Position numbers and translations under genes: made by a program. Shown here piece after piece: positions 8,913-52,525 of a stretch of 64,000 nucleotides of DNA. A model generated the notes under the pieces. It was not told the DNA's origin, did not search any database, and worked only from the letters and a program-made list of their open reading frames with translations. The number at the start of each line of letters is the position of its first letter. Positions within the stretch are counted from its first letter, which is position 1. The stretch is from contig JAPYXD010000250.1 of assembly GCA_030998225.1 (NCBI GenBank), positions 2,914,001 through 2,978,000 on the forward strand. The letters run 5' to 3'. Source of the stretch: Diplolepis rosae (Eukaryota > Arthropoda > Insecta > Hymenoptera > Diplolepididae).

Positions 8913-11035
8913 ATGTATGCGGAGAGCACAAGACCGAGCGCGAAGTTAATAACAGTTATAACACGTAGTCAAGTTAAACAAGATAGTCAGCTTGCAGAAA
9001 TAGTAGATTTGAATCAAAAGGGTAATTTAAAAATAAAACCAATTAGAAATAGAGAATATTTAACGGATAATAAGTGCCAAAATATCTTTGATCCAATCCC
9101 TACAGAACAAGAATTAGATAACACTCTTAAGTTAGATGATTAAGTTTAGACAAGACTAATTAATAATCAAAGTATATCAAGTGAAAATTCAGAAAAAACT
9201 AGCGGATTCCATTCAAGTTTCTGTCCAGACTTAAGCATTGTAACAGGATCTAGTAATCAAGATCAATCTCTAACGAACGAATTATCTTATTTTGACGAAT
9301 TCAATTTGCTAAGGTCAACAGTAATAACAATAGACAATAAAACTTTAAAATAAAAATTGGAAACCTCATTGGCACGTGAAGCTATAATTAGTACCAGTTA
9401 CAGGGAGAATTAGGTAACACATTTATGTGGGAAAGAGAAAATGTCCTTTCCTATGCCGCCAGAATTAAAGAAATTGCTGACAGAATAGAAGATGCTCACA
9501 GACTCAATAATGGCGGTCAGGTAGATAATGCTTTTAAACTAAATTTACAAATACAGTAAAACCCCGTTTATCGCAACACCTTCCAATCAAATGCCTCCCG
9601 TTTATCGCAAAAACGGAGGGGTTCCCACTTCTTCGCCACCAGCTTGAACATCTGATTATCAGCACATGCGCCTAAACGAATAGTTTCACGCGCTTTCGCT
9701 GTTTATCATTGTTTACAGTCGTGTTTCAATAACCTCGAATGCGTTTTTTTATTGTCATTATATGTGCAATTATAAATGAGTGAAAACGTGGAATCGAACG
9801 ATGGTACGTAAACGACTAGTACAAACAATAAATTTTAATTACTTTAAAGCTTACATATTTCTCTCATAATTTTCGAATGCATGATTGAATTTTTTTCAGT
9901 AGAAATATTCCCGCATTTTATAAAACAATTGATTCGCAATTGGTAAAGCGATTGCTGTACTAGGCACAATTCATGCTATAATTTGTCATAATAATATACA
10001 TTGAAATGTGAAAAATTTATATATTTTTCTGTTACATATAAAACACAAATATGTAGCAATATATACATAAACGATTGTTTGGAAAGAACTGCTAAATAAA
10101 GAATTTCAAAAACAATTATGCATTTCATGAGAAAAAAATGTACCTCTCAAAATAAGTACGGATTCCAAAGACGCTTAAAAAAATGTAATAAAATCATTTT
10201 AATAAATTAATGGCTACAAATAATTTCATATCTCCCTAATATACGAAAATTCATGTAAATATATGCATCACAAATTTAAAAGTGAGGGGTATTCCCGCCT
10301 ATCCTTAAGAATCACGTGACCACTCCTTCTACTAATAAAAGGGCGGGAAAAATGATAAGGTTTATTGCGATAAACGGGAGAGACAAGTTGCAATAAACAG
10401 GAGTTGCGATAAACGGGTGTTGCGATAAACGGGGTTTTACTCTAGATGTAATACAATGTTTTATACGCGGCTTGCGTCCCGAGTTAGAAATTCGTGTAGA
10501 AGAAAAGGATACTTTTAGGGAAGTCATTAACGACAGTATTGGTATTGAACGAAGATTAGCTGCAAATTCCGCACTACGAAGAAATAAAAATATGGATTAT
10601 TAAAAATGTGACGAGCCGACTAATAACAAAAATAATAAAGTTACTCGGTTTAATGTAGCACGCGGAGATAAATTTATTTGTTTAATTTGTAAGAAGCCAG
10701 GTCATGCAACTGAAAAATGTTTTCATTTAACTAAAGCCTAAGAGGCAGTTCTTAATAATAAACAAAATTTTTCGTATCCTAACCAACAAAGATATAATAA
10801 TTTAAATGGTCAAAGAAGAAATAATAATAATTTTTCAAGAAACAATTACAATAATTTTCCGAATAACAATTTTTTAAGAAATAAAAATTATAATTTTAAT
10901 AACAATAAAAATAATAATTTGCAAAATAGAAATAATAATTATAGAAACAATAATAGTAATTTTTTACAATAAAGATACAATAACAATAAATTTTCTAGAA
11001 ATTTGTACAATAATAATGATAATAAAAGACAATGG
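8913..11035 (+). pseudogene. element B gag, broken
   Basis: Gag of a Ty3/gypsy-type retroelement, which packages the RNA genome. The N-terminal part is open from 8913 to 9142, then stops and frame changes appear. After an inserted pogo-like element (9554-10442) the gag helix region resumes with FIRGLRPELEIRVEE. A zinc knuckle CLICKKPGHATEKC (CX2CX4HX4C) lies near 10680-10720, followed by a long Asn-rich tail (repeated NNN/YNN) and WNPGQ at 11040. The 3' part is cut by the R1-type insertion at 11050. Beyond that insertion the frame runs a few codons and then jumps near 17027 to RNase H, so protease and most of reverse transcriptase were deleted. No 5' LTR is recognisable upstream. Confidence 0.82.
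9554..10442. mobile_element. pogo/Tigger-like non-autonomous element, 889 bp
   Basis: Starts CAGTAAAACCCCGTTTATCG and ends CGATAAACGGGGTTTTACTC, with TA at 9552-9553 and 10443-10444. The pattern matches pogo-group ends. The box GCGATAAACGGG or its complement recurs several times just inside both ends, as expected for transposase binding sites. No transposase frame is present. It splits the element B gag. Confidence 0.85.
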
Positions 11036-11049
11036 AATCCAGGACAGTA

Positions 11050-16994: not shown

Positions 16995-17595
16995 TAAAAA
17001 CTTCAACTCAGGACAGTTTCACTTTGAAAATTGAAACTCGCAGAATAGTATTTTGATGTAATTTATAAAGCAGGAAAAATTAATGTAAATGCAGACGCTC
17101 TCTCAAGAAACCCTTTTGATGCTAACAAAGAAAACTCCAAATTCCAAGAAAACTTTCACAAGAGATAAACAAGAAAACTCTAAAAACGAGGTAAGACCTT
17201 CAAAACGAAGAAACTTGAGTCCAGGAATCGTACCAGACGACGTAGATCGTTTTAGCGAAATTTCGGAAGCCCAAATATTGAATATTGACTCAAAAATCCC
17301 AGAATAATTTCAGGAATTTCTTAGTGAAGAATTATTCAGTGAGATTGGTAAAAATATTTTAAAATACACAAATTCATTCAAAAGTATGATTTCAAAACTT
17401 ATTTTTATGACAATATTTTTATTAAGTCCTGTGTTTTCCAAAAAATACGAAAATTTATCATGGAAAACTATTACTACAAGAGCTCGAAAGAGAATAGAGC
17501 AAGAAAAAGTAAAAAATTTGAATCGAAATGAAACTCAAGAAAAATTAGACGAAAATTTTTCTTCTAAACCTCTTGTGAGAAGACCACGAGAGTAA
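16995..17595 (+). pseudogene. element B pol remnant: RNase H end and linker
   Basis: Near 17070-17115 the frame reads NVNADALSRNP, the conserved end of gypsy RNase H. The following linker towards integrase is open in pieces (17089-17307 and 17386-17595). It aligns well with the minus-strand element C linker at 61250-61640: the shared series ILKYT, LLMTI/FMTI, SPV/SPI, KYEN/NYEN and KTITTRARK/KTMTTRGKK is in the same order. The homology stops at 17595 after RRPRE and resumes at 41405, so the 17596-41405 segment is an insertion in element B. Confidence 0.85.
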
Positions 17596-29290: not shown

Positions 29291-29296
29291 AACAGT

Positions 29297-29315
29297 TGGT
29301 GGCAGCGGTGGGATT
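29297..29315 (+). other. primer-binding site, tRNA-Leu-like
   Basis: TGGTGGCAGCGGTGGGATT begins 6 bp after the LTR end. It is complementary to the 3' end of insect tRNA-Leu of the CCCACCGCTGCCA type plus CCA (from memory). It fixes the 5' LTR boundary. Confidence 0.7.
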
Positions 29316-30150: not shown

Positions 30151-30229
30151 TAAATTTTAGTAAGTCACCTTAAGGGATATCCTTTGTTAAAATTCCGAGT
30201 TGGGCACCTCTTGAGCCTACTAATCAAAG

Positions 30230-35547: not shown

Positions 35548-35554
35548 AGACCGT

Positions 35555-36582
35555 CTCCAGATTATATTCGAAAATCTCGATAGTCTAATCGGAGGACATA
35601 AGGGTGTAACCAAAACATACCGACGCATACGCGAAAGATACACTTGGCCTGGTTTGCGAAATGACGTACATAATAACATTCGGAACTGTAGAAGCTTTTT
35701 GGAAAACAAGTTGGTGCGGGCGCGTACCCACGAACCTATGGTAATCACTGACACCCCACTGGGAGTGTTTGATAAGGTCTCTCTAGATAACGTTGGGAGA
35801 TTGTCGACCACTCCTAGTGGAAACCGATATATACTCACTATGCAAGACAATTTTTCAAAACTATGCATTGCAGTGCCTATACCAGACTTAAAAACAGAAA
35901 CAGCTGCTCATGCCATCGCGCAACACCTAATTGCTCAATACGGAACTCCCCGTTGTATCCTCACGGACCGAGGGGGAAGTTTCATAAGCAGGCTCATGCG
36001 AAAACTGGGAAAGATATTCGGGGTTAAGCAATTAACCACTTCGGGATATCGGCCTCAGACTAACGGTTCACTTGAGCGTAGCCATATAGTACTCACTGAT
36101 TATATAATACATTATGCAGATGGTTTCGACGACCTGGACCGATTGTTGCCCTTCGTGATGTTTGTCTATAATACATCCGTCCATGAATCAACCAATTTTT
36201 CACCATTCGAATTAGTTTATGGGAGGGTAGCACGTATGTCTAGTTCATTCCCAACCACAGATAAACTAGAAACGTATGGCTCCTATCTCCGAGATCTGAT
36301 TATTCGGCTGAACGAAATTCAAAAAATCGCCGCGAAAAATATGATCGGGCCAAAGAGCAGTCAAAATTACGTTACGACAAAACAGCGCGACCTCTAAACG
36401 CCGCTATTGGTGACAGGGTGATGATCTTTAAGGATGCTCGCTAGAACAAGTTTGATAAACGAGCCGTTGGAACTTGTGCCATAGTGGGTTTCACAGAAAA
36501 CCATAATGTGATTCTTGAAGCCGACGATGGTACAAGATTCACCAAACATGTCGATAAGTTCTCGGTCGTTCACTGTTAACAA
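35555..36582 (+). pseudogene. element A integrase
   Basis: Integrase inserts the DNA copy into the genome. GGHKGVTKTYRRI near 35595 is part of the N-terminal HHCC finger, whose second cysteine pair is incomplete (CRSFLENK). The catalytic core from 35654 has the three acidic residues in VSLDNVG, LTDRGGSF and NGSLERSH. A frameshift near 36395 and a TAG near 36442 separate the C-terminal domain (GDRVMIFKDAR, FTKHVDKFSVVH). The core triad is therefore complete, but the protein is broken. Confidence 0.82.
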
Positions 36583-36681
36583 CAATGTAACTTCAAAGCA
36601 TGTTAGTGGCATTATTTTAAATTCTAATTCATCTATTATTCAGATTTGTTTCCTACTCACGGGTCGAAAAAAAAAAAAAAA

Positions 36682-38724
36682 ATGTATTCTCGTCTTCTCA
36701 CCATGTTGTTTCTCTCCTGCGTCGCCTGGACCAGCACCACAAGAGCAAAAACCCCGTATCAACATCTAAAATTTGAAGCTAGCACTGGGATTTACTATGA
36801 GCACCAGGGACCAGTAAGAAGAAGGATCAGTAACTGGAGAATTAACACATTTCTCCAGGTCGAAAAACTTTATGACTCATTGGCCTACTACCAGCTGAAG
36901 ATGAAAGCTTTAACCAAACACTGCCGTCCCAGGATGGAGGAAGAGTGTCAACGTATAGTTACCGATTACCATCTCCAACCAAAATTGGATGCAGCCAGTC
37001 GACTTCGAGATATAATTCATCAAGAGGTGGAGGATTTGGCATTTCAGTCTGCCAGAAAATTACCGATTAATCTACCAAGTGGTGTGAGGGCAAGAAGAGC
37101 CACACCCATGTTAGGTTTCTTAGGAGGGATAGTCGGTCCAGTTGCAGGATTACTCACCTATGAAGACGGAGTAATGATGGATTCCAAAATTGACGATCTA
37201 AATCAGGCTCAGGCGAACTTCTCACATCTAGTTGGAATACAAACTCATCTAGTTCGTTCCCAACTTGAACAGCTACATCAGACAGTCGAGGAACAGGAAG
37301 GTCAAATGTACGGGCTTAAATCTAAATTACTATCAGCAATGGCTCATGCAAACGAGATAGTAACGTCCGTTGACCATATCATACTTACGCAGACGATCAC
37401 TGCAGTCCTTCATTCCGTTGAGCAAAGAGTAGATGAATACCTGAGGTCAGCCCATCAGCTTATAGACGTCGTATACGCAGCAAGGGACGGAAAATTACAT
37501 CCCTCGCTTCTTACATCCCAACAACTCGAGCCGATATTCCGGGATATTCAAGACCATTCTCTAAAAACATCATTTCCGCTGTCAGGACCAAACATCAGTA
37601 TTGAGAAACTGACACAAATTTCTGAAACGACAATCGTCTGTAAAAATGGAACGCTTCAAGTAATTATTGACATTCCCTTGCTAGATGTAGCCGAATATAT
37701 CTTATACGAAATACACGTTCTACCGGTGCACCAACCTATTTTTGGAAACGGCACAGGCTCCAGAAACCAGACACCAGTTACACATCTCGTCATCGAGGAT
37801 ACTAGACGCACGTATATGCTTCTTACGCGTTCGAATCGCGCACTCTGTAGGGATCTGCAGAACTATATAATGTGCCCAGGACTATTCCCTATCTACGAGA
37901 CGGCAACTTATCCTAGATGTGAGTTGCAACTGCTTTTGGACCCAACGCTCGCATCTTTAAAACTATGCAACATCGAATTATCCTACGAACAGCATCCATA
38001 TTGGCAAACTATTCATTCACTTAACGGCTGGCTCTACTCCACGCCCAAGGAGATCGGCATGGAAATAAAATGTATCACTAAGCAGACAATTAACATCAAG
38101 ATCAATGGATTAGGACTCATCAGAATTACACTAGGCTGTGAGCTGCGATCGAACTTGGCAACTCTACCTGGGCTAGAGCCCATTTCCGGAACTTCTTTGA
38201 TAGTCTATGAACCTAGCATTCATTTGGATTTAACCAAGTTACCTACAAAGTTTGACGACAATTCATCCGTGAGATTACCATTACCTGCTTCTCCACCAAC
38301 TCCACAAGATCGACGGTACCAAGAAGATGACAGGGCACTTGACCAGCTGGAACAGCAGCTCCATGATTTCAGCTTACAACGGCAGGAAAAGGCGGGTCAT
38401 TCCAACCTGATACATGGATCCTATGCAGGGATTGGATTGCTAGCACTACTCTTTCTGGTGTACGCTTGTCATCCTAAAATCTTAATTGTTGCATCAACCT
38501 GCTGGACGTGTTGTCGTAGGAAGAAGTCTCCAACTTTGGGAGAACCGGACTCAGCTACGACACGGACTATCTTAAAAAAATCCGAGACGCCTGCTTCGTC
38601 TCAGGATATTTTAATACCTCCGTCAAATGACAATAAGGAAGCTCCAGGACCCGTCTATTCAGTCGTTACACCAATATCAACACCTCGGATCAGCATTCCT
38701 AAGCAAACGCTTCAACCAGCCTAG
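36682..38724 (+). CDS. element A envelope glycoprotein, baculovirus F-like
   Basis: Intact frame of 680 residues from the ATG at 36682, which follows an A run. It is a class I-type fusion protein of the errantivirus/baculovirus F kind. Visible parts: a hydrophobic signal peptide in the first 20 residues; a furin-type site R-A-R-R near residue 138; directly after it a Gly-rich hydrophobic fusion-peptide-like segment; a long heptad-type region with many Gln/Leu (residues ~175-235); several Asn-X-Ser/Thr sites; a transmembrane segment near residues 580-600; and a cytoplasmic tail of about 90 residues. No internal stop occurs although the same element's polymerase is deleted. It would be made from a spliced RNA. 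Confidence 0.82.
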   Translation: MYSRLLTMLFLSCVAWTSTTRAKTPYQHLKFEASTGIYYEHQGPVRRRISNWRINTFLQVEKLYDSLAYYQLKMKALTKHCRPRMEEECQRIVTDYHLQPKLDAASRLRDIIHQEVEDLAFQSARKLPINLPSGVRARRATPMLGFLGGIVGPVAGLLTYEDGVMMDSKIDDLNQAQANFSHLVGIQTHLVRSQLEQLHQTVEEQEGQMYGLKSKLLSAMAHANEIVTSVDHIILTQTITAVLHSVEQRVDEYLRSAHQLIDVVYAARDGKLHPSLLTSQQLEPIFRDIQDHSLKTSFPLSGPNISIEKLTQISETTIVCKNGTLQVIIDIPLLDVAEYILYEIHVLPVHQPIFGNGTGSRNQTPVTHLVIEDTRRTYMLLTRSNRALCRDLQNYIMCPGLFPIYETATYPRCELQLLLDPTLASLKLCNIELSYEQHPYWQTIHSLNGWLYSTPKEIGMEIKCITKQTINIKINGLGLIRITLGCELRSNLATLPGLEPISGTSLIVYEPSIHLDLTKLPTKFDDNSSVRLPLPASPPTPQDRRYQEDDRALDQLEQQLHDFSLQRQEKAGHSNLIHGSYAGIGLLALLFLVYACHPKILIVASTCWTCCRRKKSPTLGEPDSATTRTILKKSETPASSQDILIPPSNDNKEAPGPVYSVVTPISTPRISIPKQTLQPA

Positions 38725-39060
38725 AGTCAGGAACTACTCTCTTACTACGGCAGGGTCTCGTAGAGATTCTAGTGCCATTTCCAACAAGAAAGGGATCATC
38801 TCCCTGCTTCCAGCAACGTAGTGTCGTGATAGTGATGTGAAGAGAGAATAAAGTCTCTAGAAAGTGTTTGAAAGGAGGGATGAGGAATGTGTCCTAAATT
38901 ACGAAAATGCAGAACAGTTTAAAAACTCTTATGTGTGGAGGTGTGAGATAATATATTTATCATAGTATAATGTTAAAACCTAGTTATAGGATCTGGTGGA
39001 AATGATAGTCTCGGACACTGGCAATGATCAGGGACCACCATTTCTCTTCCAGGGCGGGTT

Positions 39061-40377
39061 TGTTACGGTTGACTCTACGAGACGGGAGTAATCAAATCAA
39101 AGATAAGATACACCCGTGTCCAACGCGTAATTGAATCATGCGTGCCGTGGCCGAGACTCTCTTTTCTTTCTCGTCTGTTCTTTTTCATTCTTCTAGCCGC
39201 CAATCGCACGTGCACTCGCTGCACTACAGCTCATGTGAGGGAGATAGGGAGAGCGCGGGGAAGGGGTGGCGACAACTCTTCTTCATATTTTGGCTCTCTT
39301 AATGCAATAGAGTTCCAGCGCAACTTTAAAATGTTGATAAAAATACGAACTAATAATTTTAGCGACATTCGTAGTATCACCTAATAAAAATAATCGTTAT
39401 AATGATGAATGATTACATAATAATAATTATTGTTATAATGATTAATTATTTGATGATACTTATTATAATAATAATTAACTGTATAATAATTATTATTAAT
39501 GAAACGATAATTCTAATGACGTGAATTAAACGATTGACTTTGATTTGACATTAGTGCACGTGTCCTGCAAAACTGTTTAGCTAGCGCGTTATCAGCATCA
39601 GCATTTTAAGGTCGCGCCACATCCTCCCTTCGTTCTCACAGTAGTCAGCAGGAGTCAAGTTACAAATTCGCAAAAGTCCCTTCCATGCATACACCCACGA
39701 CGCTAATTTTTACCGATCCTCGCCAGCATTCCTCTTCGATTTCTCGGGCGGACAAGATGTCCAGCGGGTCGTGTGGAAAAAGGGACAGGTGACTGTTCTC
39801 TCGCTCCGTCCGTGTTTCCCATCACGAATCGCATCGTGAGAGTGACTCCGAAGGCTCCTCAGAGTCGAAAATTCGAGTACACTAGGGGGTGTTTCGGGAC
39901 GTAAATTGGGTAAACGAATCGCGTAGAAACAAATTTAGAAACAAATTAAGAAACAAATTTAAAAACTGTGTGCAACCGGTCCAGTTTGGTAGTGAAACCA
40001 AGTGTTAACCACTGTGTTTCGAAAGAACAAGAAAGCTGAGAAGCTTGTGCGCGTATAGCCCAGATTTGTAACACCACATCGGTAAAATGGGTGCGATTCG
40101 ACGTATTTGACGTTATTTGAAAACCTTGACGCTTACAGGAAGTCAAGGCTAGGCAGAGCAAGGTATTTCCCCAGGAAATAGAGCTCAGAGGACGATCACC
40201 CACAATAAATAAAATAAACAAAGTGATGTGAATTACTTTGACTGTTTGGTTCCTCCGGCGAACAAACTAAGGCAACTACTTCTCATTTCTTCTTTCGTAA
40301 CACCTCTTTTCAGGTCTTTGAGTGGGATAGTTGTTTTTGAAAATTATGTTTAAAATCAAAATTGCCCGTTCGTAACA
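39061..40377 (+). repeat. element A 3' LTR
   Basis: Starts TGTTACGGTT after a purine-rich GGGCGGG stretch and ends CGTTCGTAACA. It matches the 5' LTR at 39667-39867 and 40112-40377. The U3 part and 39870-40111 do not match it. The core ORF-like sequences inside have no coding character. Confidence 0.78.
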
Positions 40378-41117
40378 CTTCTTTTAGTTGGAGCAACTTA
40401 TTACTCCTGAGAAATTTAAACGTATGATGAAATATGCCAACAAGGTCGAGTAATTCAACATTTTTTAAAACAGAAGGGGATGGAGCTTTTTTCGGTTATT
40501 AAAACCGTTTATGTACAGGTACATAAGGGTTGAATTATGAAACGCGAATTAGTTTATACTAAAAATAGTTATTATATGTGACTATTATTAATAGCTCACG
40601 TTCCGAACGTAAGATAATTTTTACACTACTCCAAGGTACGTTTACTTGTTGAATTCTGTAATCTATATTTGATAAATTTATATTTAATTATAGTTAAGAA
40701 ATAAATACATATGCCTATTTAAATATATACAACATTATATACCATAATAATAAATATTACCGAGTTATATTTTAGTATTATTCAATTAATTTCATTTCAT
40801 TAGTTTAATTATGTATACTATCAATACTAATACCGGTAAAAAAGCATGGATTTCATATTGTTTCATTAATATTTACACTTTTCCCTTTTTACTATATTTG
40901 AATGTACCGCAAAATTCTTTCTAATCAACCAAAGTAAATATGGCGGCTCAGCCTTCAATTGGGCACACGACTTTGCGAACTTTCCCATTGGCATTGTGCA
41001 TCCAGTGTATTATAGATATCAGTGAGCATTACGCGGGCATGGCCTGAAGTACCGGCACAGAAAAAAAACGGCATAGAAAAAGTGTTAAGAGGCGTTGGTC
41101 ATAAAAAATATTATCAG
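40378..41117. other. Maverick-side flank, no gene
   Basis: AT-rich to about 40920, then less so (CGGCTCAGCCTTCAATTGG). No coding frame or RNA gene recognised. Confidence 0.4.
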
Positions 41118-41400
41118 CATAGACTCCCAGCTGGGTCGGTAACTAGGGTCTCTGATATATCAATTGAGAATTTTTTTGGTATATACAGTTAGAGCTACTC
41201 GAGGTAAATCCCCCTTATGATAACCCCTAAAATTTTCTCCGTTTCTGCGATCTCTTACCGTTTTCGAGATATTTCAAAATTTCGATTTGGAAGGGGTCAA
41301 CTTGAATTACTATATACACAAGAGACATGCCACAGCACAGACTTTCAGCATGGTCGGTAAGTAGGGTCTCTGATATATCAATTGAGCATTTTTTGCACAT
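41118..41400 (-). repeat. right terminal repeat region of the Maverick-like block
   Basis: Inverse copy of the inner left repeat (17848-18150): GGGTCTCTGATATATCAATTG occurs twice, around 41150 and 41365, and TACAGTTAGAGCTA lies between them. The sequence immediately after 41405 is element B coding sequence, which marks the right edge of the insertion. Confidence 0.8.
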
Positions 41401-41404
41401 ATAA

Positions 41405-42176
41405 ATATATACAAATATATGAAGATGAATTACCAGAAATAAATATGGAAAAGGGAAGCCGAACAAAAGTAGAATCAGATTCCGAGTCTGATCCTGATTA
41501 TTTAGATTATTTGAAACAAACTCAAGCAAAAAACAAAAAGAAGAATGTCAAGAAGCCGAAAAATATTAATGGATTTGAGAGCGAAGAAAGTGAAAATTAT
41601 TTTCCAACCTCAGAAGATGAAATCAACGACATTGAAACCTCACACGAAGCAAGTCATGGAGAAAATTATGAAGAAAATTTGGAAGAAAATTTTGAAGAAG
41701 ATTTTGAAGGAAATTTCAAAAAGAATTTTGAACAGAATTTTGAAGAAAATTTTGAAGACAATCTTGAGGAAAATTTTGAAGAGCAGTGTGAAGAAAACCA
41801 AGAAGAACAATTGGAAGAAGAATTTGAAGAGCCTTACTTTGAAAAACGTGAAACGTTACCAAAATTTAAAAATTTACAAAAAAGAATAGCAAAAGAGATT
41901 AAAAAAGGAAACTACTACCATTTTACACTTCCCATTGTAGAAGAAACCAAAGAAACTTTATGCGAAACTTTGAATAATATAAAATTATCAATTCACTCAT
42001 TACATGAATTATCTCAAAATCTGAAATTGCGATCAATTAGTATTTCAAAAACTTCCAGAATTAATCATATACCTTGGGAAGAAGTGAAATCAATTTTCGA
42101 TTCAATTTTCTCAAATCTAACTACAAAAATTATAGTTTGCAACGGAATAACGCAATATTTAACAAAAGAACAATGA
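41405..42176 (+). pseudogene. element B linker before integrase
   Basis: Resumes at EDELPEINMEKG, matching element C EDELPEIYTKNP at about 60770. The shared series DYLKQTQAKNKKK, ESENYFPTSEDE, KEIKKGNYYHF, SISKTSRINHI and KIIVCNGITQY follows the same order as in C. One continuous frame of 264 residues ends with TGA at 42174. The middle holds an expanded Glu/Asn/Phe repeat that C lacks. Function of the linker is not known; it includes a segment resembling the N-terminal part of the integrase finger region. Confidence 0.85.
41656..41836 (+). repeat. 12-bp coding minisatellite (EENF repeat)
   Basis: About fourteen degenerate repeats of GAAGAAAATTTT encode E-E-N-F-type units. They are in frame with the element B linker and are absent from the corresponding place of element C. 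Confidence 0.75.
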
Positions 42177-42189
42177 ACTCATTTAATTG

Positions 42190-43272
42190 AAGAAGCTCAT
42201 TCTTCAGCATTAGGAGGCCATAAAGGCGTCACAAAAACTTATAGCCGAGTTAGCCAAAAATTTTTTTGGGAAAATATGAAAGTAGACATTCAAAAATCCT
42301 ATGGTAATCACTGACACACCCACTACTGCTTTTGAAAAAATATCAATGGACGTTGTTGGTCCACTACCTGAGACAAAATCTGGTAACTTATATATTCTAA
42401 CGATACAAGACAATTTTACCAAATATTCTTTAGCAATACCTCTTCCTAATCACCAAGCTAGTACGATAGCAGATGCTTTTGTGAAAAAATTTATTTGCAT
42501 ATTTGGATCACCGAAAGGAGTACTTACTAACCATAGCAGAGATTTTTTAAGTAATTTATTAAAAAGATTGGCAAAACGTTTTAGAATTAAACAATTTCGT
42601 ACCACAGCTTTTCACCCTCAATCAAACGGGTCACTAGAACGTTCACATCATGTTTTAGGAGAATATCTCAAACAATTTGTAGCCAAAAATTCAGAATGGG
42701 ATGATTGGCTTGAACTAGCAATGTCTTCATATAATACTAGTGTACATGAAGGCACAAAATGTACACCCTATGAATTGGTTTTTGGTAAACTAGCTCGTGA
42801 ACCTTCCTGTTAACCTTTATCACAACAAGAAAAATTACAAACATATGACGATTATTTGATTAATTTCGTAACACAACTGCACGAAATGCGAACGCAAGCA
42901 AGAAAGAATCTTAATTCAGCAAAAGAAAAATCGAAATTATATTATGATGAAAAAATAAATCCCTTAGAAGTAAAAATTGGAGATAACGTATTTTTATTCA
43001 AAGGGGGTAAAATTAAAAAACTTGACAGCTATTATACAGGGCCTTATGAGATATTGGAAGTGTCAGGAAAAGGGAATGTAAAAATAAGCTATAAAGGCAA
43101 ACCTACTGTAGTTCACATTAATAGACTAAAACAATTCAGATATAATAGAAGACATTTTTTCAACAATCAAAACAAGAGGACCGGACGCATACAAAAATTT
43201 AATTCTCAGTTTAGGGCTATCAAATCACATTGTCATTGCCGACATGTTGGATATAATGAACTACCAACGTAA
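42190..43272 (+). pseudogene. element B integrase
   Basis: The finger start HSSALGGHKGVTKTYSRV lies near 42198. The following CX2C pair was lost by a short deletion before 42301. The core (42301-42813) has the first aspartate in SMDVVGPLP and the glutamate in NGSLERSH. The second aspartate position reads LTNHSRDF, with Asn replacing Asp, so the triad is incomplete. After a stop at 42811 the C-terminal domain (42856-43272) carries YYTGPYEILEV, the GPY/F motif. Same orientation as gag and envelope. Confidence 0.85.
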
Positions 43273-43383
43273 AATACAAGAAGTAAATCAGTAACTTCAA
43301 AAATATACATATGTAACGATAAAACATTTTTCTATTCTTATATTACAAACCAAGCTGCTAATTGGAACCTCCTTTTTCCAGAG

Positions 43384-45420
43384 ATGGGATTACGAGGATT
43401 CCTTTTTGCACTGTTCACTTGTAAATTCAACTATATAACAACAGTCTACGCCATCATAGGATTCGATTGCGGTTCAAATCAATCAAATATTACGACATTA
43501 TCTTTACTAGAGGTAGGAGAATGTGATCTACCTCGATCTCAAATACATCTTGAAAGAACTTATATACAACTTTTACAATTAACTGGATGTTCAAATACAA
43601 AAGTAATACAATGCAAAATAGAAATTCGACGCGCCATTTCGCATTGTGGCATGCATTCTCACAGTTCCATAGTTGCAAATGGCCACAGTGAATATATACA
43701 TGATGTTACATTATTCATTTAAGTTCATTTAAATTCAATTTCAGTTCATTTAAATTCAAATAAAATTGAATTAGGATCTGGAATAATATGCACACTTTCA
43801 GACACATTCTGTACAGACGTAGAATATGGACAAACATTCTGGGATACATTACCTAATGACGTATGTAATTTTAACAAATATGAAATTATTTATGAAGGAC
43901 CAGCAAATAAAACATTTGACAACACCGCAGACAATTCTGAAACCTTTTATTCTTTAACTACTGAAGATATAACCTTTGTATTGGCTGAAAAAACAAGAAA
44001 ACCCGTTTGTAGTTACGTTTTAATACAAACTGAACATCCAAAATTATTAATTTTTGAAATCAGACCTGGAAATTCATTTCTAGAAAATAAACATTTAGAA
44101 TTTCAAAATCTGGACATTTTTACATACGTTAACTCTAAATTTATATATGTGGAACGACACATACGCACTGAAGTAAATAGACTTTATCACGATGTTCTTA
44201 CTCAACGATGCATACTTGAACAGCAAGTTTTTAGAAATACATTAACCTTAGCATTCCAATCACCAGACGAATTTGCATATTATTTAATGAAAGGCCCAGG
44301 ATATATGTCAGTAATTGCAGGAGAAGTAGTACATGTCGTAAAATGTATACCAGTTGAAGTATTGTAAAATATCCCAAAACTGAAGAATGTTATCTACAAC
44401 TACCAATATTTAGAGGAAATCAATCCTTTTTCCTTTCTCCACGAACTCATATATTAACAAAACCCGGTATCTAAACCAATGTACCTTTTTGGAGAAACCT
44501 GGTACAAATTACTTCCAAATTCTGTCGAATCCATAGCACCAACTATAGTTAAACCTCTCACAGAAGCAATCTGGAAATACACAAATCCTTCATCCTTAGC
44601 AACAAGTGGCATTTATTCTCAATCTGATCTTGATAAACTGCGAGATCATATTATGTTTCTAGCGGAAAAACCACTGATTCTAAATTCTTCAGCTAGAGAA
44701 ATAACAGGACATCCAACTATTAATCAAGGAATATCATTAACGAATTTATTCAATGAAGATGTAATTGATAAAATTGCTGAATCCGCATGGGGTAGATTTT
44801 GGACAATTTTCACAAGTTTTAGAACTACTAGTGCAGGCCTAATTGGATTAATAATAATAATTAGAGGGATTAAATTGATAGCGGATACCATTATTCATGG
44901 ATGTGCGCTACACAGATTATTTGGATGGTCTTTCCATCTACTAGGCGCCTTCTGGGATTCGGTTACTACCCTTTTATTACACTTAGGTACCCATCGATCT
45001 TCTGGACCTCCTGCTGAGAGACATCAAGAACTGCTAACAGCTTCAGCGCCACAAAGCTCGAAAGAGGCACCTAAAAGTTTATCGTATTACGCAAATACTA
45101 CTGCAGGTAAAAATCACAATAATACAAACACAACTCTTTATCTTCACTCTGAACTAAAAGAAAACTTAGTAGAACCCACTACTCAATCCAAATCTAACAT
45201 CTTCAGAATGTCGCATGTTCCTTTTACAACCTTACTAAACAAAATTATTCAACAAAGAGGAGATCCACCCCTCATTTATGAGATACTCATTGAACAAACC
45301 AATAATAACGAATTTCTATTTCACGTTAATTTACAATATAAAAATTATATAATAATGAATAGTGACAAAGATAAAGAAAATGTAAAGCAAAAGGTAGCAC
45401 AAATTTATATAATGCCTTAA
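43384..45420 (+). pseudogene. element B envelope-type glycoprotein, broken
   Basis: Envelope gene in three open parts: 43384-43722, 43981-44367 and 44479-45420. The first has a hydrophobic start and IIGFDCGSNQSNITTLSLLE. The middle has a Cys-containing segment with PGYMSVIAGEVVHVVKC. The last has HIMFLAEKPL, a transmembrane segment near 44840-44885 (GLIGLIIIIRG) and a cytoplasmic tail of about 180 residues. It is unlike the F-type envelope of element A. Its layout recalls the chuvirus-type glycoproteins captured by insect LTR elements, from memory, so the family is tentative. Stops and frameshifts at the joints make it non-functional. Confidence 0.7.
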
Positions 45421-45524
45421 TTAATGAATCAAAGGAAACAAATCAAAATGTCCAACCAAATTCTATTAGTGAAAATTGCAAAAAATTAAACGAAATTTGC
45501 ACTCAAAATAGATTGCGTTCCGCT

Positions 45525-45655
45525 GTAAGACTATAATGCGCATGCGCAGTTCAATTTCTACATTGTATTCCTCTGTAAGGGAATATACAACATTGCTTTA
45601 CTCTCAGCTGTAACGGAAAAACGAGTTTCCGCGGCTGAGGCACATAAAGTTATTA
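45525..45655 (+). repeat. dispersed repeat at the palindrome edge
   Basis: Inverse copy of 2690-2830: GCGCATGCGCAGTTCAATTT, TATTCCTCTGTAAGG, AACGAGTTTCCGCG and CACATAAAGTTA occur in the same order. Its last 12-15 bp are already inside the left palindrome arm. Confidence 0.7.
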
Positions 45656-45748
45656 TTCAACCTCCTTATCAGACCTTAATAAAATAAATCTATTCTGAAA
45701 ATTTGTAGAAAATGATACCAACTCCAACTGAACTTACAAATTTTTTAC

Positions 45749-45874
45749 ATGCGGCAAAGAGCAGATTTATGCGTAACTTGTGCCGAACGTGTAATTCATT
45801 TATGCCAACAAGAAGCATTATATAACGACGTCGATTCCGAAGCATCCACCATTATTTATAATAACAACGAATAA
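45749..45874 (+). CDS. 41-residue Cys/His ORF
   Basis: Short frame starting MRQRADLCVTCAERVIHLC and ending IIYNNNE. The CX2C...HXC spacing could bind a metal ion. It lies inside the left palindrome arm, 330 bp before the dsRNA-binding gene, so it could be an upstream exon. A second copy lies at 52117-52242 on the minus strand. No family recognised; it may be chance. Confidence 0.3.
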   Translation: MRQRADLCVTCAERVIHLCQQEALYNDVDSEASTIIYNNNE

Positions 45875-46202
45875 AAATAATAAATCAAAACATATTTTTT
45901 ATTATTCTTTTTTCTAATTATAAACAATATCTATTAATAACTTTCTTTAAAAAATTTTCCCTTTTTATTTTTATTCGTTGTTTAAAATCATATTGCATAT
46001 ACATCACTACTTTTCCTTTTTTTTGCACAACTTAAAGCAGACTACTGTTCTCTCTGCATGAAATATCTCTTTGGGTTAGCAAACGCGGATAATGAATACA
46101 TCAACAAACACAAAATTATTAACAGAAAAAACTAACTAACTTTAGAATTTTAATAAATTTAATCATCAACTCAAACAGGTAATTCTTTTGCAGATCAAAA
46201 CA

Positions 46203-46652
46203 ATGGCCCTGCAGACAAGAGACCTATCGAAAGGTACTGCTGTACAAGTTTTAAATGAGATAAGCATAGAGTATGATTTCTCTGAACCCTCATATATTGT
46301 AAAATCGCTTGGAAAACACGAAGAACTGCCACCGTTCCAAGCAACTTGCGGAATCTTTAAAAATAAAATAACTTTTTCTTGTATTGGGGAACCAGCCCCT
46401 CAAAAAAAGTCTGCAAAGCAATATGCAGCAACTAAACTCTTCGAAACTCTTTCCACAAGATACGTATTTTTAGAAGAAATGGAAAGAAAAAGCTTAATCC
46501 CGGAATCCAAAATTTTCAAAATAAGTGATGAAATCAGTAAGGAAACCCTGCAAAAATGGACCAACTCTTGTGAAAGGTGTTTTCAAAGAGGACATTTAGC
46601 TCATAACTGCCGCAACCCTTTACGTAATAAAAAATATAAAAGTAACTCCTAA
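46203..46652 (+). CDS. dsRNA-binding domain plus zinc knuckle protein (left arm copy)
   Basis: Intact 149-residue frame. Residues ~10-80 show a double-stranded RNA-binding domain: the helix TAVQVLNEISIEYDF, the loop GKHEELPPF, strands around ITFSCIGE and the lysine-rich helix QKKSAKQYAATKLFETL with the KKxAK motif. The C-terminal part carries a single CCHC knuckle, CERCFQRGHLAHNC (CX2CX4HX4C), and a basic tail. TTTTGCAG at 46186-46193, just before the ATG, is a plausible splice acceptor. It lies between the element B envelope and a polypurine tract plus LTR, so it appears to be an accessory gene of that retroelement. A dsRNA-binding accessory protein could interfere with small-RNA defence; this is inference. 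Confidence 0.8.
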   Translation: MALQTRDLSKGTAVQVLNEISIEYDFSEPSYIVKSLGKHEELPPFQATCGIFKNKITFSCIGEPAPQKKSAKQYAATKLFETLSTRYVFLEEMERKSLIPESKIFKISDEISKETLQKWTNSCERCFQRGHLAHNCRNPLRNKKYKSNS

Positions 46653-47082
46653 AAATTTTCACTAATCTACGACATTATAAAATTAAGTTTTATATTACAG
46701 CATGCTATTTATAATTTACGAATATGAAATAAGAAATTATTGATGTATTTAGTTATATAACAAAAAATCATATGTAACCTTATGTTAAGTCCATACTATT
46801 TCAAAAAAACTATGTAATTATTTATAACAAAAAAATTAAAATATTACTATAATATAAATTTTTATGACATCCAAAAAAAATGTTCGATATTGGAATGTAT
46901 CAAATAGTAAAATGCAAAGAATACAAATTGTAAAACAGACGCCGAAATGAACGTTGTATTTATCATTCACATTTTGTTACTATATCAGAAAAAGAATTTG
47001 AATGTATCACTTCAAAAACATTAATGAATGTATTCTTCTTCCGAAGATTCGTTCACGGATGCTTCACCCCCGCGCTCGAACT
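46653..47082 (+). other. non-coding end of element B
   Basis: AT-rich, no frame. It ends in a GC-rich stretch CTTCACCCCCGCGCTCG directly before the polypurine tract. Confidence 0.45.
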
Positions 47083-47083
47083 A

Positions 47084-47099
47084 GGGGGGGGGGGGGGGG
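47084..47099 (+). other. polypurine tract (G16)
   Basis: A run of 16 G after AACTA directly precedes the LTR start TGTCACG. Such tracts prime plus-strand synthesis in LTR elements, so the internal region lies to the left. The other arm has 13 bases here. Confidence 0.7.
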
Positions 47100-47435
47100 T
47101 GTCACGTCCCGCAACGTATTTGAATGTACTATAGGCACAGGCTAGGTCTAAAGAAAAATCTGATGAAATCACTAAAAGAGAGGTATAACTACGTCACACG
47201 CAGCGGGAGACGTCACCAAAAAAATATAATATAAAAAGGACACGCCACCAAGGGAAAACTAGTCTTGTTAATTTATAATTAAATTAAATTATAATTAAAA
47301 TAAACTTGAATTGTCTTACTTTATAATCATTGTGTCTTTTCATTGACTTATCCTCATCCCTAAGCGAGGATCATCCGATCCTAACTTAAAACGAGGAATC
47401 TTCGATCAAAGTATTTACGTACTTGTGACGTAACA
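47100..47435 (+). repeat. LTR, 336 bp, probable element B 3' LTR
   Basis: Starts TGTCACGTCCC and ends TTGTGACGTAACA. TATAATATAAAAAGG near 47230 could be the TATA box and AATAAACTTG near 47301 the polyadenylation signal. It lies right after the polypurine tract. No matching 5' LTR was found before the gag at 8913, so the link to B rests on order and orientation. The second copy at 50559-50894 is inverted. Confidence 0.72.
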
Positions 47436-48410
47436 CAGTAATAACTGAGAAATATGTTTGTTCATATCTAATTTATTACAATAAACATCCTAAGCGTTGA
47501 AGAATACCAACTGCATTCCTATATTACCAGTCTCCAATACTGAAGATTATTTTTCAGTTATTTGTCCTTTACATTGAAATTATTCACATATAATTTTTAT
47601 TACTACAAACATCCTGAGCAACAGGACGAAATTATAAGAAAAAATCGTAATTGAATTCTTATCTACGAGATTCCAAGTAATATTTGTCTTTCGAAACACT
47701 ATTACGCCCTTATGACTCCAGGAGTAATTGAGCACCTGGATTCTAAAACTCGCCGCGCTCTCGGAAACAGGTAAAAGTATTGTCCACTGGGTCAAAATGA
47801 AGGTTTGAAAAAAATGTTTTTTAATAAAAAAAATAAATATATATTCGAGTAGAGCATGTTCAGCCCCATATTTTTCCTAAGTGAAATTTTTTTATCCGTT
47901 CATTATTTTCTTCAATAAAAAATAAAAACACAAAATTTTTCCTTCGAGAAAAAGTGGTTTTTTAAACATTTAACTCGTCATTTCTCAGCAAAAAATGTAT
48001 GAAATGATTTGAGACTTCCAGGACTTATGTAAAACATACCACTGAAGCCGGTAAGATCCTTTTAATAAATAAAATATGCAATTGTTTATAGATATTTAAT
48101 AACAAATTGATGCGCACCGTATTTCGTGTTTTTCTAACTTCGCCGACAAAAAGTATCTGGGGAAGTTTAACCTACAAAAAAGTTCCAGCGAGAAAGTTGT
48201 TCCCATATGTATAAAGAAATTTTTCTGAAAATTTGAGATTATTCGGATGAAAACTACAGGAGTTCTATGGATTATTATTAAAAACTTCTCGGCAGCCGCA
48301 TCTCGCCTCGGGCATCGAGCACGTGCCAAAGTGCAAGTTACCGGTCGCATCTCCTTTTTTCAATGTTTCTATTTACAGGATCGTTACTTAGCGTGTAATT
48401 TAACAAAACA
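47436..48410. other. outside flank within the palindrome arm
   Basis: AT-rich and mostly non-coding. Short frames at 47580-47795 (minus) and 48096-48350 (minus) have no family features. GGGCATCGAGCACGTGCC near 48310 is a GC-richer patch. Confidence 0.4.
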
Positions 48411-48494
48411 GTAAAACCCGCTTCATAGCCAATTTCGAAAAAGAAAATCTTTTAAAAAAATCCTGGTATCTCTTATCCTTTGCTATGTTAACGA

Positions 48495-49471: not shown

Positions 49472-50558
49472 CGTAAATAATTTATAAATAAAACATCTAA
49501 AACAACCGGACAAATGATTGCAAAAATACTGCGAAACGAATACAATTTGTAGGAGCCGAAAAAAACATGAATCTTCAAAATAATGTTTTGTTAAATTACA
49601 CGCTAAGTAACGATCCTGTAAATAGAAACATTGAAAAAAGGAGATGCGACCGGCAACTTGCACTTTGGCACGTGCTCGATGCCCGAGGCGAGATGCGGCT
49701 GCCGAGAAGTTTTTAATAATAATCCATAGAACTCCTGTAGTTTTCATCCGAATAATCTCAAATTTTCAGAAAAATTTCTTTATACATATGGGAACAACTT
49801 TCTCGCTGGAACTTTTTTGTAGGTTAAACTTCCCCAGATACTTTTTGTCGGCGAAGTTAGAAAAACACGAAATACGGTGCGCATCAATTTGTTATTAAAT
49901 ATCTATAAACAATTGCATATTTTATTTATTAAAAGGATCTTACCGGCTTCAGTGGTATGTTTTACATAAGTCCTGGAAGTCTCAAATCATTTCATACATT
50001 TTTTGCTGAGAAATGACGAGTTAAATGTTTAAAAAACCACTTTTTCTCGAAGGAAAAATTTTGTGTTTTTATTTTTTATTGAAGAAAATAATGAACGGAT
50101 AAAAAAATTTCACTTAGGAAAAATATGGGGCTGAACATGCTCTACTCGAATATATATTTATTTTTTTTATTAAAAAACATTTTTTTCAAACCTTCATTTT
50201 GACCCAGTGGACAATACTTTTACCTGTTTCCGAGAGCGCGGCGAGTTTTAGAATCCAGGTGCTCAATTACTCCTGGAGTCATAAGGGCGTAATAGTGTTT
50301 CGAAAGACAAATATTACTTGGAATCTCGTAGATAAGAATTCAATTACGATTTTTTCTTATAATTTCGTCCTGTTGCTCAGGATGTTTGTAGTAATAAAAA
50401 TTATATGTGAATAATTTCAATGTAAAGGACAAATAACTGAAAAATAATCTTCAGTATTGGAGACTGGTAATATAGGAATGCAGTTGGTATTCTTCAACGC
50501 TTAGGATGTTTATTGTAATAAATTAGATATGAACAAACATATTTCTCAGTTATTACTG

Positions 50559-50894
50559 TGTTACGTCACAAGTACGTAAATACTTTGATCGAAGATTCCT
50601 CGTTTTAAGTTAGGATCGGATGATCCTCGCTTAGGGATGAGGATAAGTCAATGAAAAGACACAATGATTATAAAGTAAGACAATTCAAGTTTATTTTAAT
50701 TATAATTTAATTTAATTATAAATTAACAAGACTAGTTTTCCCTTGGTGGCGTGTCCTTTTTATATTATATTTTTTTGGTGACGTCTCCCGCTGCGTGTGA
50801 CGTAGTTATACCTCTCTTTTAGTGATTTCATCAGATTTTTCTTTAGACCTAGCCTGTGCCTATAGTACATTCAAATACGTTGCGGGACGTGACA
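50559..50894 (-). repeat. LTR copy in the right arm
   Basis: Mirror of 47100-47435, same ends in inverse orientation. A run of 13 C at 50895-50907 mirrors the G16 tract. Confidence 0.85.
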
Positions 50895-51338
50895 CCCCCC
50901 CCCCCCCGAGTTCGAGCGCGGGGGTGAAGCATCCGTGAACGAATCTTCGGAAGAAGAATACATTCATTAATGTTTTTGAAGTGATACATTCAAATTCTTT
51001 TTCTGATATAGTAACAAAATGTGAATGATAAATACAACGTTCATTTCGGCGTCTGTTTTACAATTTGTATTCTTTGCATTTTACTATTTGATACATTCCA
51101 ATATCGAACATTTTTTTTGGATGTCATAAAAATTTATATTATAGTAATATTTTAATTTTTTTGTTATAAATAATTACATAGTTTTTTTGAAATAGTATGG
51201 ACTTAACATAAGGTTACATATGATTTTTTGTTATATAACTAAATACATCAATAATTTCTTATTTCATATTCGTAAATTATAAATAGCATGCTGTAATATA
51301 AAACTTAATTTTATAATGTCGTAGATTAGTGAAAATTT

Positions 51339-51788
51339 TTAGGAGTTACTTTTATATTTTTTATTACGTAAAGGGTTGCGGCAGTTATGAGCTAAATGTC
51401 CTCTTTGAAAACACCTTTCACAAGAGTTGGTCCATTTTTGCAGGGTTTCCTTACTGATTTCATCACTTATTTTGAAAATTTTGGATTCCGGGATTAAGCT
51501 TTTTCTTTCCATTTCTTCTAAAAATACGTATCTTGTGGAAAGAGTTTCGAAGAGTTTAGTTGCTGCATATTGCTTTGCAGACTTTTTTTGAGGGGCTGGT
51601 TCCCCAATACAAGAAAAAGTTATTTTATTTTTAAAGATTCCGCAAGTTGCTTGGAACGGTGGCAGTTCTTCGTGTTTTCCAAGCGATTTTACAATATATG
51701 AGGGTTCAGAGAAATCATACTCTATGCTTATCTCATTTAAAACTTGTACAGCAGTACCTTTCGATAGGTCTCTTGTCTGCAGGGCCAT
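51339..51788 (-). CDS. dsRNA-binding domain plus zinc knuckle protein (right arm copy)
   Basis: Encodes the same 149 residues as the left-arm gene, on the minus strand. The dsRNA-binding domain (GKHEELPPF, KKSAKQYAA) and the CX2CX4HX4C knuckle are unchanged. The acceptor-like CTGCAAAAG next to the start is mirrored too. This copy is not next to envelope sequence, so if expressed it depends on sequences within the arm or beyond 52350. The two genes face each other, so read-through from either would give a long hairpin RNA. Confidence 0.78.
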   Translation of the reverse strand: MALQTRDLSKGTAVQVLNEISIEYDFSEPSYIVKSLGKHEELPPFQATCGIFKNKITFSCIGEPAPQKKSAKQYAATKLFETLSTRYVFLEEMERKSLIPESKIFKISDEISKETLQKWTNSCERCFQRGHLAHNCRNPLRNKKYKSNS

Positions 51789-52116
51789 TGTTTTGATCTG
51801 CAAAAGAATTACCTGTTTGAGTTGATGATTAAATTTATTAAAATTCTAAAGTTAGTTAGTTTTTTCTGTTAATAATTTTGTGTTTGTTGATGTATTCATT
51901 ATCCGCGTTTGCTAACCCAAAGAGATATTTCATGCAGAGAGAACAGTAGTCTGCTTTAAGTTGTGCAAAAAAAAGGAAAAGTAGTGATGTATATGCAATA
52001 TGATTTTAAACAACGAATAAAAATAAAAAGGGAAAATTTTTTAAAGAAAGTTATTAATAGATATTGTTTATAATTAGAAAAAAGAATAATAAAAAATATG
52101 TTTTGATTTATTATTT

Positions 52117-52242
52117 TTATTCGTTGTTATTATAAATAATGGTGGATGCTTCGGAATCGACGTCGTTATATAATGCTTCTTGTTGGCATAAATGAATTAC
52201 ACGTTCGGCACAAGTTACGCATAAATCTGCTCTTTGCCGCAT
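52117..52242 (-). CDS. 41-residue Cys/His ORF, right arm copy
   Basis: Mirror of 45749-45874 with the same CX2C...HXC pattern. Function unknown and possibly not translated. Confidence 0.28.
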   Translation of the reverse strand: MRQRADLCVTCAERVIHLCQQEALYNDVDSEASTIIYNNNE

Positions 52243-52525
52243 GTAAAAAATTTGTAAGTTCAGTTGGAGTTGGTATCATTTTCTACAAATTTTCAGAATA
52301 GATTTATTTTATTAAGGTCTGATAAGGAGGTTGAATAATAACTTTATGTGCTACTATAAACGTCCGATAACCGCAGCTTATGCAAAATTTAATTATTGTA
52401 CCTTGATACAAAGATTCGAATATAACGTTATTTATCTATTACTATAAAGCACTTATCCACCCTGCTTCAATTTTTCCTTCAACCTTCATCAAGTTTTTTC
52501 TAGAAACTTCAAAATAAACGTTTAA

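What the first reader, a model, noticed from the sequence alone, without database searches (positions are those of the whole stretch)
46203..46652. A dsRNA-binding plus zinc-knuckle gene at the 3' end of an envelope-bearing retroelement
The frame encodes a dsRNA-binding domain (GKHEELPPF loop, KKSAKQYAA helix) followed by one CCHC knuckle. It sits after the envelope of element B, before a G16 polypurine tract and an LTR, with a splice-acceptor-like TTTTGCAG just before the ATG. I know of no insect LTR retroelement described with such an accessory gene. A protein that binds long dsRNA would suit suppression of the host siRNA pathway, as some insect RNA viruses do. The domains are seen directly; the retroelement membership follows from order and orientation; the suppressor role is inference.
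Basis: partly seen in the sequence, partly recalled or inferred. Interest (0 to 1): 0.85.

Follow-up and report, generated by a model that had tools for sequence, protein, structure and literature searches.

The report
Giant insect retroelement with dsRNA-binding genes
The predicted dsRNA-binding gene is real and belongs to a very large (about 17.6 kb), recently active insect retrovirus-like element that carries two unrelated envelope genes and a set of extra genes, several of them predicted to bind double-stranded RNA, which may help it deal with the host's RNA-based defences.

Summary
Observation confirmed. Frame 46203-46652 encodes a dsRBD (KKxAK helix) plus one CX2CX4HX4C knuckle, after an acceptor-like TTCTTTTGCAG and before a G16 tract and LTR. 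It is not a host gene: 150 places were scored in the same genome, 126 of 150 without internal stop, and dN/dS between diverged copies is 0.13-0.21.

Better-kept relatives show what the decayed window copy conceals. Seven of 7 copies tested are Ty3/gypsy elements of 17.6-18.5 kb with LTRs 98.95-100% identical; 6 of 7 have exact 4-bp target-site duplications. Order, read piecewise from several copies: LTR, gag, pol, CARD-like ORF G, env1 (chuvirus-type GP), A (two dsRBDs), E (weak dsRBD plus CCHC), env2 (baculovirus-F type), C and D (Cys-rich), B (this gene), PPT, LTR.

Retroelement membership is established; the gene is one of three dsRBD proteins. RNAi suppression is the best-precedented function but was not tested; RNA export/translation control and packaging stay open. 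Ten literature searches listed no such element; one key survey was not held. I call it a new variant of a known kind: a "complex" insect endogenous retrovirus.

The parts
46203..46652 (+). ORF B: 149 aa, dsRBD (res. 14-84) plus CCHC knuckle (res. 123-136); intact in the window
46183..46193 (+). acceptor-like TTCTTTTGCAG before ORF B; AG kept in 30 of 30 loci
47084..47099 (+). G16 tract at the place of the polypurine tract (AGGGGGGGAGG in 6 of 7 and AGGGGGAGG in 1 of 7 young copies)
47100..47435 (+). 3' LTR, internally shortened (336 bp here, 759-762 bp in young copies), TGTCACGT...GTGACGTAACA
45208..45514 (+). remnant of ORF A (two-dsRBD protein, 245 aa when intact); only about the first 100 codons left
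45712..45733 (+). remnant of the start of ORF C (Cys-rich, 135 aa when intact)
45736..45874 (+). remnant of the end of ORF D (Cys-rich, 143 aa when intact)
43129..45205 (+). env1 remnant (ends approximate): Monjiviricetes (chuvirus-type) fusion glycoprotein, broken frames
43129..43261 (+). remnant of ORF G (CARD-like, overlaps the start of env1)
41411..43132 (+). pol 3' part: acidic region and integrase, broken
17015..17594 (+). pol piece collinear with the piece at 41411; probably the same copy split by insertions
10444..11049 (+). gag piece
8954..9543 (+). gag piece; the LTR of one young copy (L047) found no 5' LTR upstream
51339..51788 (-). second copy of ORF B, 100% identical protein, in the inverted duplicate 49581-52351
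50559..50894 (-). LTR of the inverted duplicate

Best explanation
ORF B is an accessory gene of a recently active, env-bearing Ty3/gypsy endogenous retrovirus of about 17.6 kb. SHOWN: it lies between near-identical LTRs, next to the polypurine tract, last in a 3' gene cassette (A, E, env2, C, D, B) kept in the same order in two diverged subfamilies, and its protein is under purifying selection. INFERRED: the cassette genes are made from spliced subgenomic RNAs (acceptor-like sites before the ATGs). INFERRED: B binds double-stranded RNA through its KKxAK-bearing dsRBD, with the zinc-knuckle tail adding RNA affinity or specificity, and thereby shields the element's own dsRNA from Dicer-2, acting as a suppressor of siRNA silencing like iridovirus 340R. 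A and E, whose dsRBDs lack KKxAK, may be partners or may contact host dsRBD proteins.
For: Family and motif. Copy number and intactness: 126 of 150 rows without stop; second subfamily with 21 rows of equal score 245.4, no stops. Selection: (B dN/dS 0.135, 0.128, 0.173, 0.212, 0.207 in five pairs). Element structure; RT closest to Ty3 in the PDB, E 2.6e-98. Same order in a second subfamily. Acceptors. RNAi leaning: B's only dsRBD matches in the PDB are two chains of Dicer-like DCL1 (E 0.012-0.06) and all five of E's matches are TARBP2 (E 0.013-0.64); all are weak. Precedent: IIV-6 340R has one 70-aa dsRBD plus a needed 73-aa tail, and DCV 1A has one dsRBD; both block Dcr-2 processing (PMC4231766, abstract and passages). 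An inverted pair of B copies lies in this window, a layout that could make hairpin dsRNA if transcribed.
Against: No test of RNA binding or RNAi was possible. Both AlphaFold2 models are unusable (mean pLDDT 39.3 and 30.4). The loop histidine of the canonical dsRBD is not conserved in B. E's dsRBD stays below the Pfam cut-off (20.8 and 19.2 bits against 23) and A has no PDB match at E 0.01. A zinc knuckle also fits packaging or chaperone roles. L075 and L079 end B in the same frameshifted tail while their LTRs are 99.5-100% identical to that of L012, so B-defective copies seem to have spread, perhaps complemented in trans. Expression is unknown. No RGTRWG donor was found in the first 0.9-1.0 kb after the 5' LTR in 7 copies. 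Known control of insect gypsy elements is largely by piRNA (PMC13172572, passages), which a dsRNA binder need not affect.
Confidence: 0.5

Rival explanations
1. B (with A and E) is a Rev/Tat-like regulator: the dsRBD recognises structured element RNA and governs export, stability or translation of unspliced and partly spliced RNAs of a large genome with many acceptors.
For: Acceptor-like sites before A, E, env2, C, D and B imply a complex splicing programme that needs control; three dsRBD proteins fit division of labour.
Against: No conserved structured target RNA was looked for; [quoted passage not shown] no transcriptome.
Confidence: 0.22
2. B is a structural or assembly factor: dsRBD plus CCHC acts as a second nucleocapsid-like protein in genome packaging, tRNA annealing or reverse transcription.
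For: The CCHC knuckle is of the nucleocapsid kind (weak PDB matches to HIV-1 nucleocapsid, E 0.44-0.48); the dsRBD+CCHC layout recurs in E.
Against: Gag already carries its own CCHC (PF00098, 25.8 bits); frameshifted yet spread copies.
Confidence: 0.15
3. The dsRBD genes act against another arm of host defence or cell death, for instance by binding host dsRBD proteins (R2D2, Loquacious) rather than RNA, together with the CARD-like ORF G as an apoptosis decoy.
For: A and E lack KKxAK; E resembles TARBP2 most; ORF G weakly matches CARD (15.5 bits, cut-off 23.9).
Against: The CARD match is below cut-off and the PDB gives no CARD match; B itself keeps KKxAK.
Confidence: 0.1
4. The frame is a host gene or a chance ORF next to a decayed element.
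For: The window copy alone is decayed and its element is interrupted.
Against: 150 scored places genome-wide, inside LTR pairs with target-site duplications in the copies tested, purifying selection.
Confidence: 0.01

Closest known systems
Errantiviruses / env-bearing Ty3/gypsy elements of insects (Metaviridae)
   Same: LTRs starting TG and ending CA, 4-bp target-site duplication, PPT, gag-pol-env order, Ty3-type RT, F-type envelope (env2)
   Different: About 17.6 kb; a second, chuvirus-type envelope; a spliced-looking cassette with three dsRBD proteins, two Cys-rich proteins and a CARD-like ORF. Errantiviruses are usually about 7-8 kb with three ORFs (recalled)
Anakin (BEL/Pao element with chuvirus glycoprotein, mosquitoes; Dezordi 2020, PMC7642597, passages read)
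   Same: LTR element that captured a chuvirus-type glycoprotein
   Different: Backbone here is Ty3/gypsy, not BEL/Pao; extra accessory genes. A search of that paper's main text for 'dsRNA-binding', 'accessory' and 'zinc' found 0
Jingchuvirales-glycoprotein EVEs of Hymenoptera next to Gypsy fragments (Dezordi 2023, PMC10084718, abstract, Results and Discussion read; Flynn and Moreau 2019, PMC6540820, passages)
   Same: Same kind of glycoprotein in ants and bees; Gypsy fragments nearby (Dezordi 2023)
   Different: Dezordi 2023 found no clear capture by Gypsy; here the glycoprotein sits in elements with complete LTR pairs
Insect viral suppressors of RNAi with a dsRBD: IIV-6 340R and DCV 1A (PMC4231766, abstract and passages)
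   Same: Small protein with one dsRBD; 340R also has a needed C-terminal tail, as B has a 65-residue tail
   Different: No sequence relation tested; B's tail is a CCHC knuckle; B belongs to a retroelement
Complex vertebrate retroviruses (lentiviruses, spumaviruses; recalled)
   Same: Accessory genes 3' of pol, probably made from spliced RNAs
   Different: Different domains and a Ty3/gypsy backbone

Membership tests
Metaviridae (Ty3/gypsy) env-bearing element | Ty3-type RT/RNase H then integrase | tested here: met
   PF00078, PF17917; PDB best match Ty3 Gag-Pol E 2.6e-98; IN downstream
Metaviridae (Ty3/gypsy) env-bearing element | Paired LTRs with TG...CA ends and short target-site duplication | tested here: met
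   7 of 7 copies paired, 98.95-100% identical; 6 of 7 exact 4-bp duplications, 1 of 7 three of four bases. 10 five-prime pieces were fetched; for 3 no 3' LTR piece was held
Metaviridae (Ty3/gypsy) env-bearing element | Polypurine tract before the 3' LTR | tested here: met
   AGGGGG(GG)AGG directly before TGTCACG in 7 of 7 copies
Metaviridae (Ty3/gypsy) env-bearing element | tRNA primer-binding site | not tested
   Sequence after the 5' LTR is constant in 7 of 7 copies but no tRNA match was made
Errantivirus-type envelope | F-type (Baculo_F) Env | tested here: met
   env2 PF12259 E 5.9e-23, 81.7 bits
Anakin / BEL-Pao with chuvirus glycoprotein | BEL/Pao RT | tested here: not met
   RT/RNase H matches Ty3 at 333 bits in the PDB; limit: no BEL/Pao reference was compared
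Anakin / BEL-Pao with chuvirus glycoprotein | Chuvirus-type glycoprotein | tested here: met
   env1 PF24664 (Monjiviricetes fusion), 824 bits; the family is wider than chuviruses and no tree was built
dsRBD protein family (ORF B) | Pfam dsrm above cut-off 23 | tested here: met
   Window copy 19.5, below; 4 of 4 relatives 26.3-29.9; L012 29.9
dsRBD protein family (ORF E) | Pfam dsrm above cut-off 23 | tested here: not met
   20.8 bits and 19.2 bits in the second subfamily; TARBP2 is its best PDB match, E 0.013
dsRBD protein family | alpha-beta-beta-beta-alpha fold | tested here: inconclusive
   AlphaFold2 models too poor
Viral suppressor of RNAi (340R/1A type) | Binds dsRNA and blocks Dicer-2 processing | not testable with these tools
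   Needs bench assay
CARD protein (ORF G) | Pfam CARD above cut-off 23.9 | tested here: not met
   15.2 and 15.5 bits

The most novel reading that the evidence does not exclude
This is a complex retrovirus of insects: a recently mobile Ty3/gypsy virus with two envelope proteins of different families and a dedicated, spliced 3' cassette of host-manipulation genes (a trio of dsRBD proteins against RNAi, a CARD-like decoy against cell death or signalling, and paired zinc-binding regulators), the insect counterpart of the accessory-gene sets of lentiviruses.
Probability: 0.4. Interest if true: 0.93.

Novelty: new variant of a known kind. Interest (0 to 1): 0.84.

Why it matters
Insect endogenous retroviruses are described as gag-pol-env elements controlled largely by piRNAs (PMC12992720 and PMC13172572, passages). 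An element more than twice the usual size (usual size recalled), with near-identical LTRs, at least 150 scored places for this gene, two envelope families and three dsRBD proteins suggests that insect retroviruses can be as gene-rich as lentiviruses, and it makes the question whether they suppress the siRNA pathway directly testable with small single proteins. It also gives complete Gypsy elements bearing a chuvirus-type glycoprotein, which the 2023 arthropod survey looked for and did not find.

Tried and rejected
Host gene or chance ORF: rejected. Fusion of env with a dsRBD, suggested by the open frame 44479-45420: rejected as decay, because in the L074 copy env1 closes before the ATG of A and A is a separate 243-245 aa frame. 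Spliced retrocopies as proof of splicing: none seen in 30 loci; L005 diverges 29 nt upstream of the ATG, not at the AG, and its A-B distance fits an insertion. Structure prediction: two jobs, both unusable, so no fold search was run. Relatives of B in viral contigs: 48 pattern matches, none a relative. PDB relatives of C and D (E up to 5) and A (E up to 0.01): none. env1 in the PDB: two weak matches to a glutathione transferase, taken as irrelevant. CARD in ORF G: below cut-off, kept only as 'CARD-like'. Whether the 39%-identical A relative P0184 comes from this genome: unanswered, machine busy. Chary and Hayashi 2025: not held. PMC7264820 (plant extra ORFs) was seen in the search listing only; PMC12440569 (Troyka) as abstract and outline only.

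Full report
OBSERVATION. The frame at 46203-46652 is as described: MALQTRDLSK..., 149 aa, with GKHEELPPF, KKSAKQYAA and one CERCFQRGHLAHNC knuckle. Pfam scores of the window copy are weak (dsrm 19.5 bits, zf-CCHC_3 20.6, both below cut-off), but all four relatives of this gene scanned pass dsrm at 26.3-29.9 bits; their knuckle scores stay below cut-off or are not listed. Upstream is ...GGTAATTCTTTTGCAGATCAAAACAATG; downstream, G16 (47084-47099) and a terminal repeat from 47100 to 47435.

IT IS A REPEATED, CONSERVED GENE. A protein search found 69 homologues, all from unnamed ENA contigs. In the window's own genome (757.7 Mb, 428 contigs) 150 places were scored of 2088 first-look candidates; 126 of 150 have no internal stop (best-scoring places only). 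Twenty-six rows share one score (302.2 bits); of 29 loci with the full 447 nt, 15 are identical in DNA. A query with P0021 (59% identical to the window protein) showed a second subfamily, 73% identical to that query, with 21 rows of equal score and no stop. Between the subfamilies (L012 and L059) B aligns over all 149 codons without gap, dS 1.09, dN 0.147, dN/dS 0.135; four other pairs, two of them over 147 codons, give 0.128-0.212. Differences by codon position are 26/20/53 (chi-square P = 9e-5). In a simple simulation 2 of 2000 neutral copies keep the frame free of stops at 35% substitution.

THE ELEMENT. I read pieces of several copies apart and joined none. Going 3' to 5' from the LTR: B; D (143 aa) and C (135 aa), both Cys-rich, no Pfam family, sharing C-x2-C-x13-C-x2-C in both subfamilies and so probably paralogues; env2 (593 aa, Baculo_F, E 5.9e-23); E (194 aa, dsrm 20.8 bits, below the cut-off of 23, plus CRFCNTQMHATKEC); A (245 aa, two dsRBDs, dsrm 28.2-50.1 bits in five relatives); env1 (766 aa, Monjiviricetes fusion glycoprotein, 824 bits); ORF G (93 aa from its ATG, CARD 15.5 bits, below the cut-off 23.9); integrase, RNase H and RT (RT nearest to Ty3 in the PDB, E 2.6e-98); gag (621 aa with CCHC). 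Not every copy has every frame open: among the 8 copies of the middle region (L035-L042), E has 194 codons in 3 of 8, and env2 is open from its start to its usual end or beyond in 6 of 8 (568-651 aa).

ENDS. Ten 5' pieces were fetched; 7 could be paired with a 3' LTR piece already held. In 7 of 7 the two LTRs (759-762 bp) are 98.95-100% identical, mean divergence 0.43%; 6 of 7 show exact 4-bp target-site duplications and the seventh 3 of 4 bases; total length is 17,587-18,517 bp. A polypurine tract AGGGGG(GG)AGG precedes the 3' LTR in 7 of 7. So these copies moved recently.

IS B A CONSTANT PART? The 7 copies were found through B, so I also started from gene A. Of 100 A places (of the 150), 71 have B on the same strand 3.8-8.4 kb from the start of A, 48 of the 71 within 4841-4888 nt. 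The other 29 lacked B in the list, which holds only the best-scoring B places; I fetched 6 of these 29: 4 carry B with a frameshift, 1 a 3' remnant, 1 none (there D and most of the LTR are missing too). L075 and L079 end B in the same frameshifted tail, so a B-defective lineage seems to have spread. Among the copies looked at I found none that appears never to have had B; the other 23 of the 29 were not looked at.

THE SECOND SUBFAMILY keeps the order A, E, env2, C, D, with B directly downstream by coordinates. dN/dS: A 0.287, E (115 codons) 0.081, env2 0.136, C 0.151, last 181 codons of env1 0.164; D is saturated. dS is 0.27-0.38 for env1 and A but 1.1-1.7 for E, env2, C and B, which suggests mosaic subfamilies with a break near A/E. 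E is split there: both copies read end its first frame in the same tail and go on in an overlapping frame.

EXPRESSION. Acceptor-like sequences stand before the ATGs: TTCTTTTTCAG (env2, in both subfamilies), TTTGTAG/TTTATAG (C), CCCCAACAG/TGTTATAG (D), CATCTTCAG/CATCTTAAAG (A), GATTCAG (E, in 3 of the 4 copies shown and in L074; L041 has GATTAAGG), and TTCTTTTGCAG, or TTTTACAG in one, in 30 of 30 loci (B). No RGTRWG donor was found in the first 0.9-1.0 kb after the 5' LTR in 7 copies, and no spliced retrocopies in 30 loci. Splicing is therefore inferred.

THE WINDOW COPY looks like one decayed member of the family: gag pieces at 8954-9543 and 10444-11049, pol at 17015-17594 and 41411-43132, env1, the start of A, scraps of C and D, intact B, and a shortened LTR ending at 47435, all in order and on one strand. 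Large stretches of other sequence separate the pieces. The tail from 45640 is duplicated in inverted orientation at 49581-52351 (99.8%), so B occurs twice in the window.

FUNCTION. The RNA-contact motif KKxAK (motif recalled) is kept in 14 of 16 near-full-length B proteins and CX2CX4HX4C in 13 of 16. It is absent from P0124 (A) and from E of L035. The only dsRBD matches of B in the PDB are plant Dicer-like 1, those of E TARBP2, all weak. The closest functional precedents are insect viral proteins: 340R, one 70-aa dsRBD with a needed 73-aa tail, and DCV 1A; both stop Dicer-2 processing of dsRNA (PMC4231766, abstract and passages). I put RNAi suppression first (about one in two), RNA export or translation control second, packaging third. 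None was tested.

LITERATURE. Ten searches of the held library listed no paper that I recognised, from titles and abstract openings, as describing an insect LTR element with a dsRBD gene. Dezordi 2023 (PMC10084718, Results and Discussion) reports Gypsy next to chuvirus-type glycoproteins in Hymenoptera but no clear capture by Gypsy. Chary et al. 2026 (PMC13172572, passages) mention type III fusion glycoproteins in gypsy elements, so that part is probably already known from Chary and Hayashi 2025, which was not held.

Noticed in passing
window 45640-48413 and 49581-52351: A 2.77-kb inverted duplication (99.8% identical, about 1.2 kb apart) holding ORF B and the LTR; recent duplication or assembly artefact, not decided.
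   Followed up: partly
window about 28374-40377: A second LTR element with Baculo_F envelope (36646-38724): direct repeats 28374-28574/39665-39865 (97%) and 29025-29290/40112-40377 (96.6%) look like its LTR pair.
   Followed up: no
window 59823-63880, minus strand: Pol fragments of a related element, 80-84% identical to the family's pol.
   Followed up: no
window 17847-18135 and 41115-41401: Inverted repeat pair (92.7%) near the two borders of the large insertion that splits the pol gene.
   Followed up: no
L044:2419-2715; window 43129-43261: ORF G, CARD-like by a weak Pfam match and by its KTRGPDAYKNLILSL motif (likeness recalled); overlaps the start of env1.
   Followed up: partly
L073, L074 against L012, L034, L035, L042, L044: Synonymous divergence jumps from 0.27-0.38 (env1, A) to 1.1-1.7 (E, env2, C, B): mosaic subfamilies, probably recombination near A/E.
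   Followed up: partly
P0184: A 259-aa relative of ORF A at 39% identity with the same dsRBD layout and a KCxKCG tail; its source organism is unknown.
   Followed up: partly
L035:2876-3851: ORFs C and D: two Cys-rich proteins, probably paralogues (shared C-x2-C-x13-C-x2-C), with no Pfam or PDB relative.
   Followed up: partly
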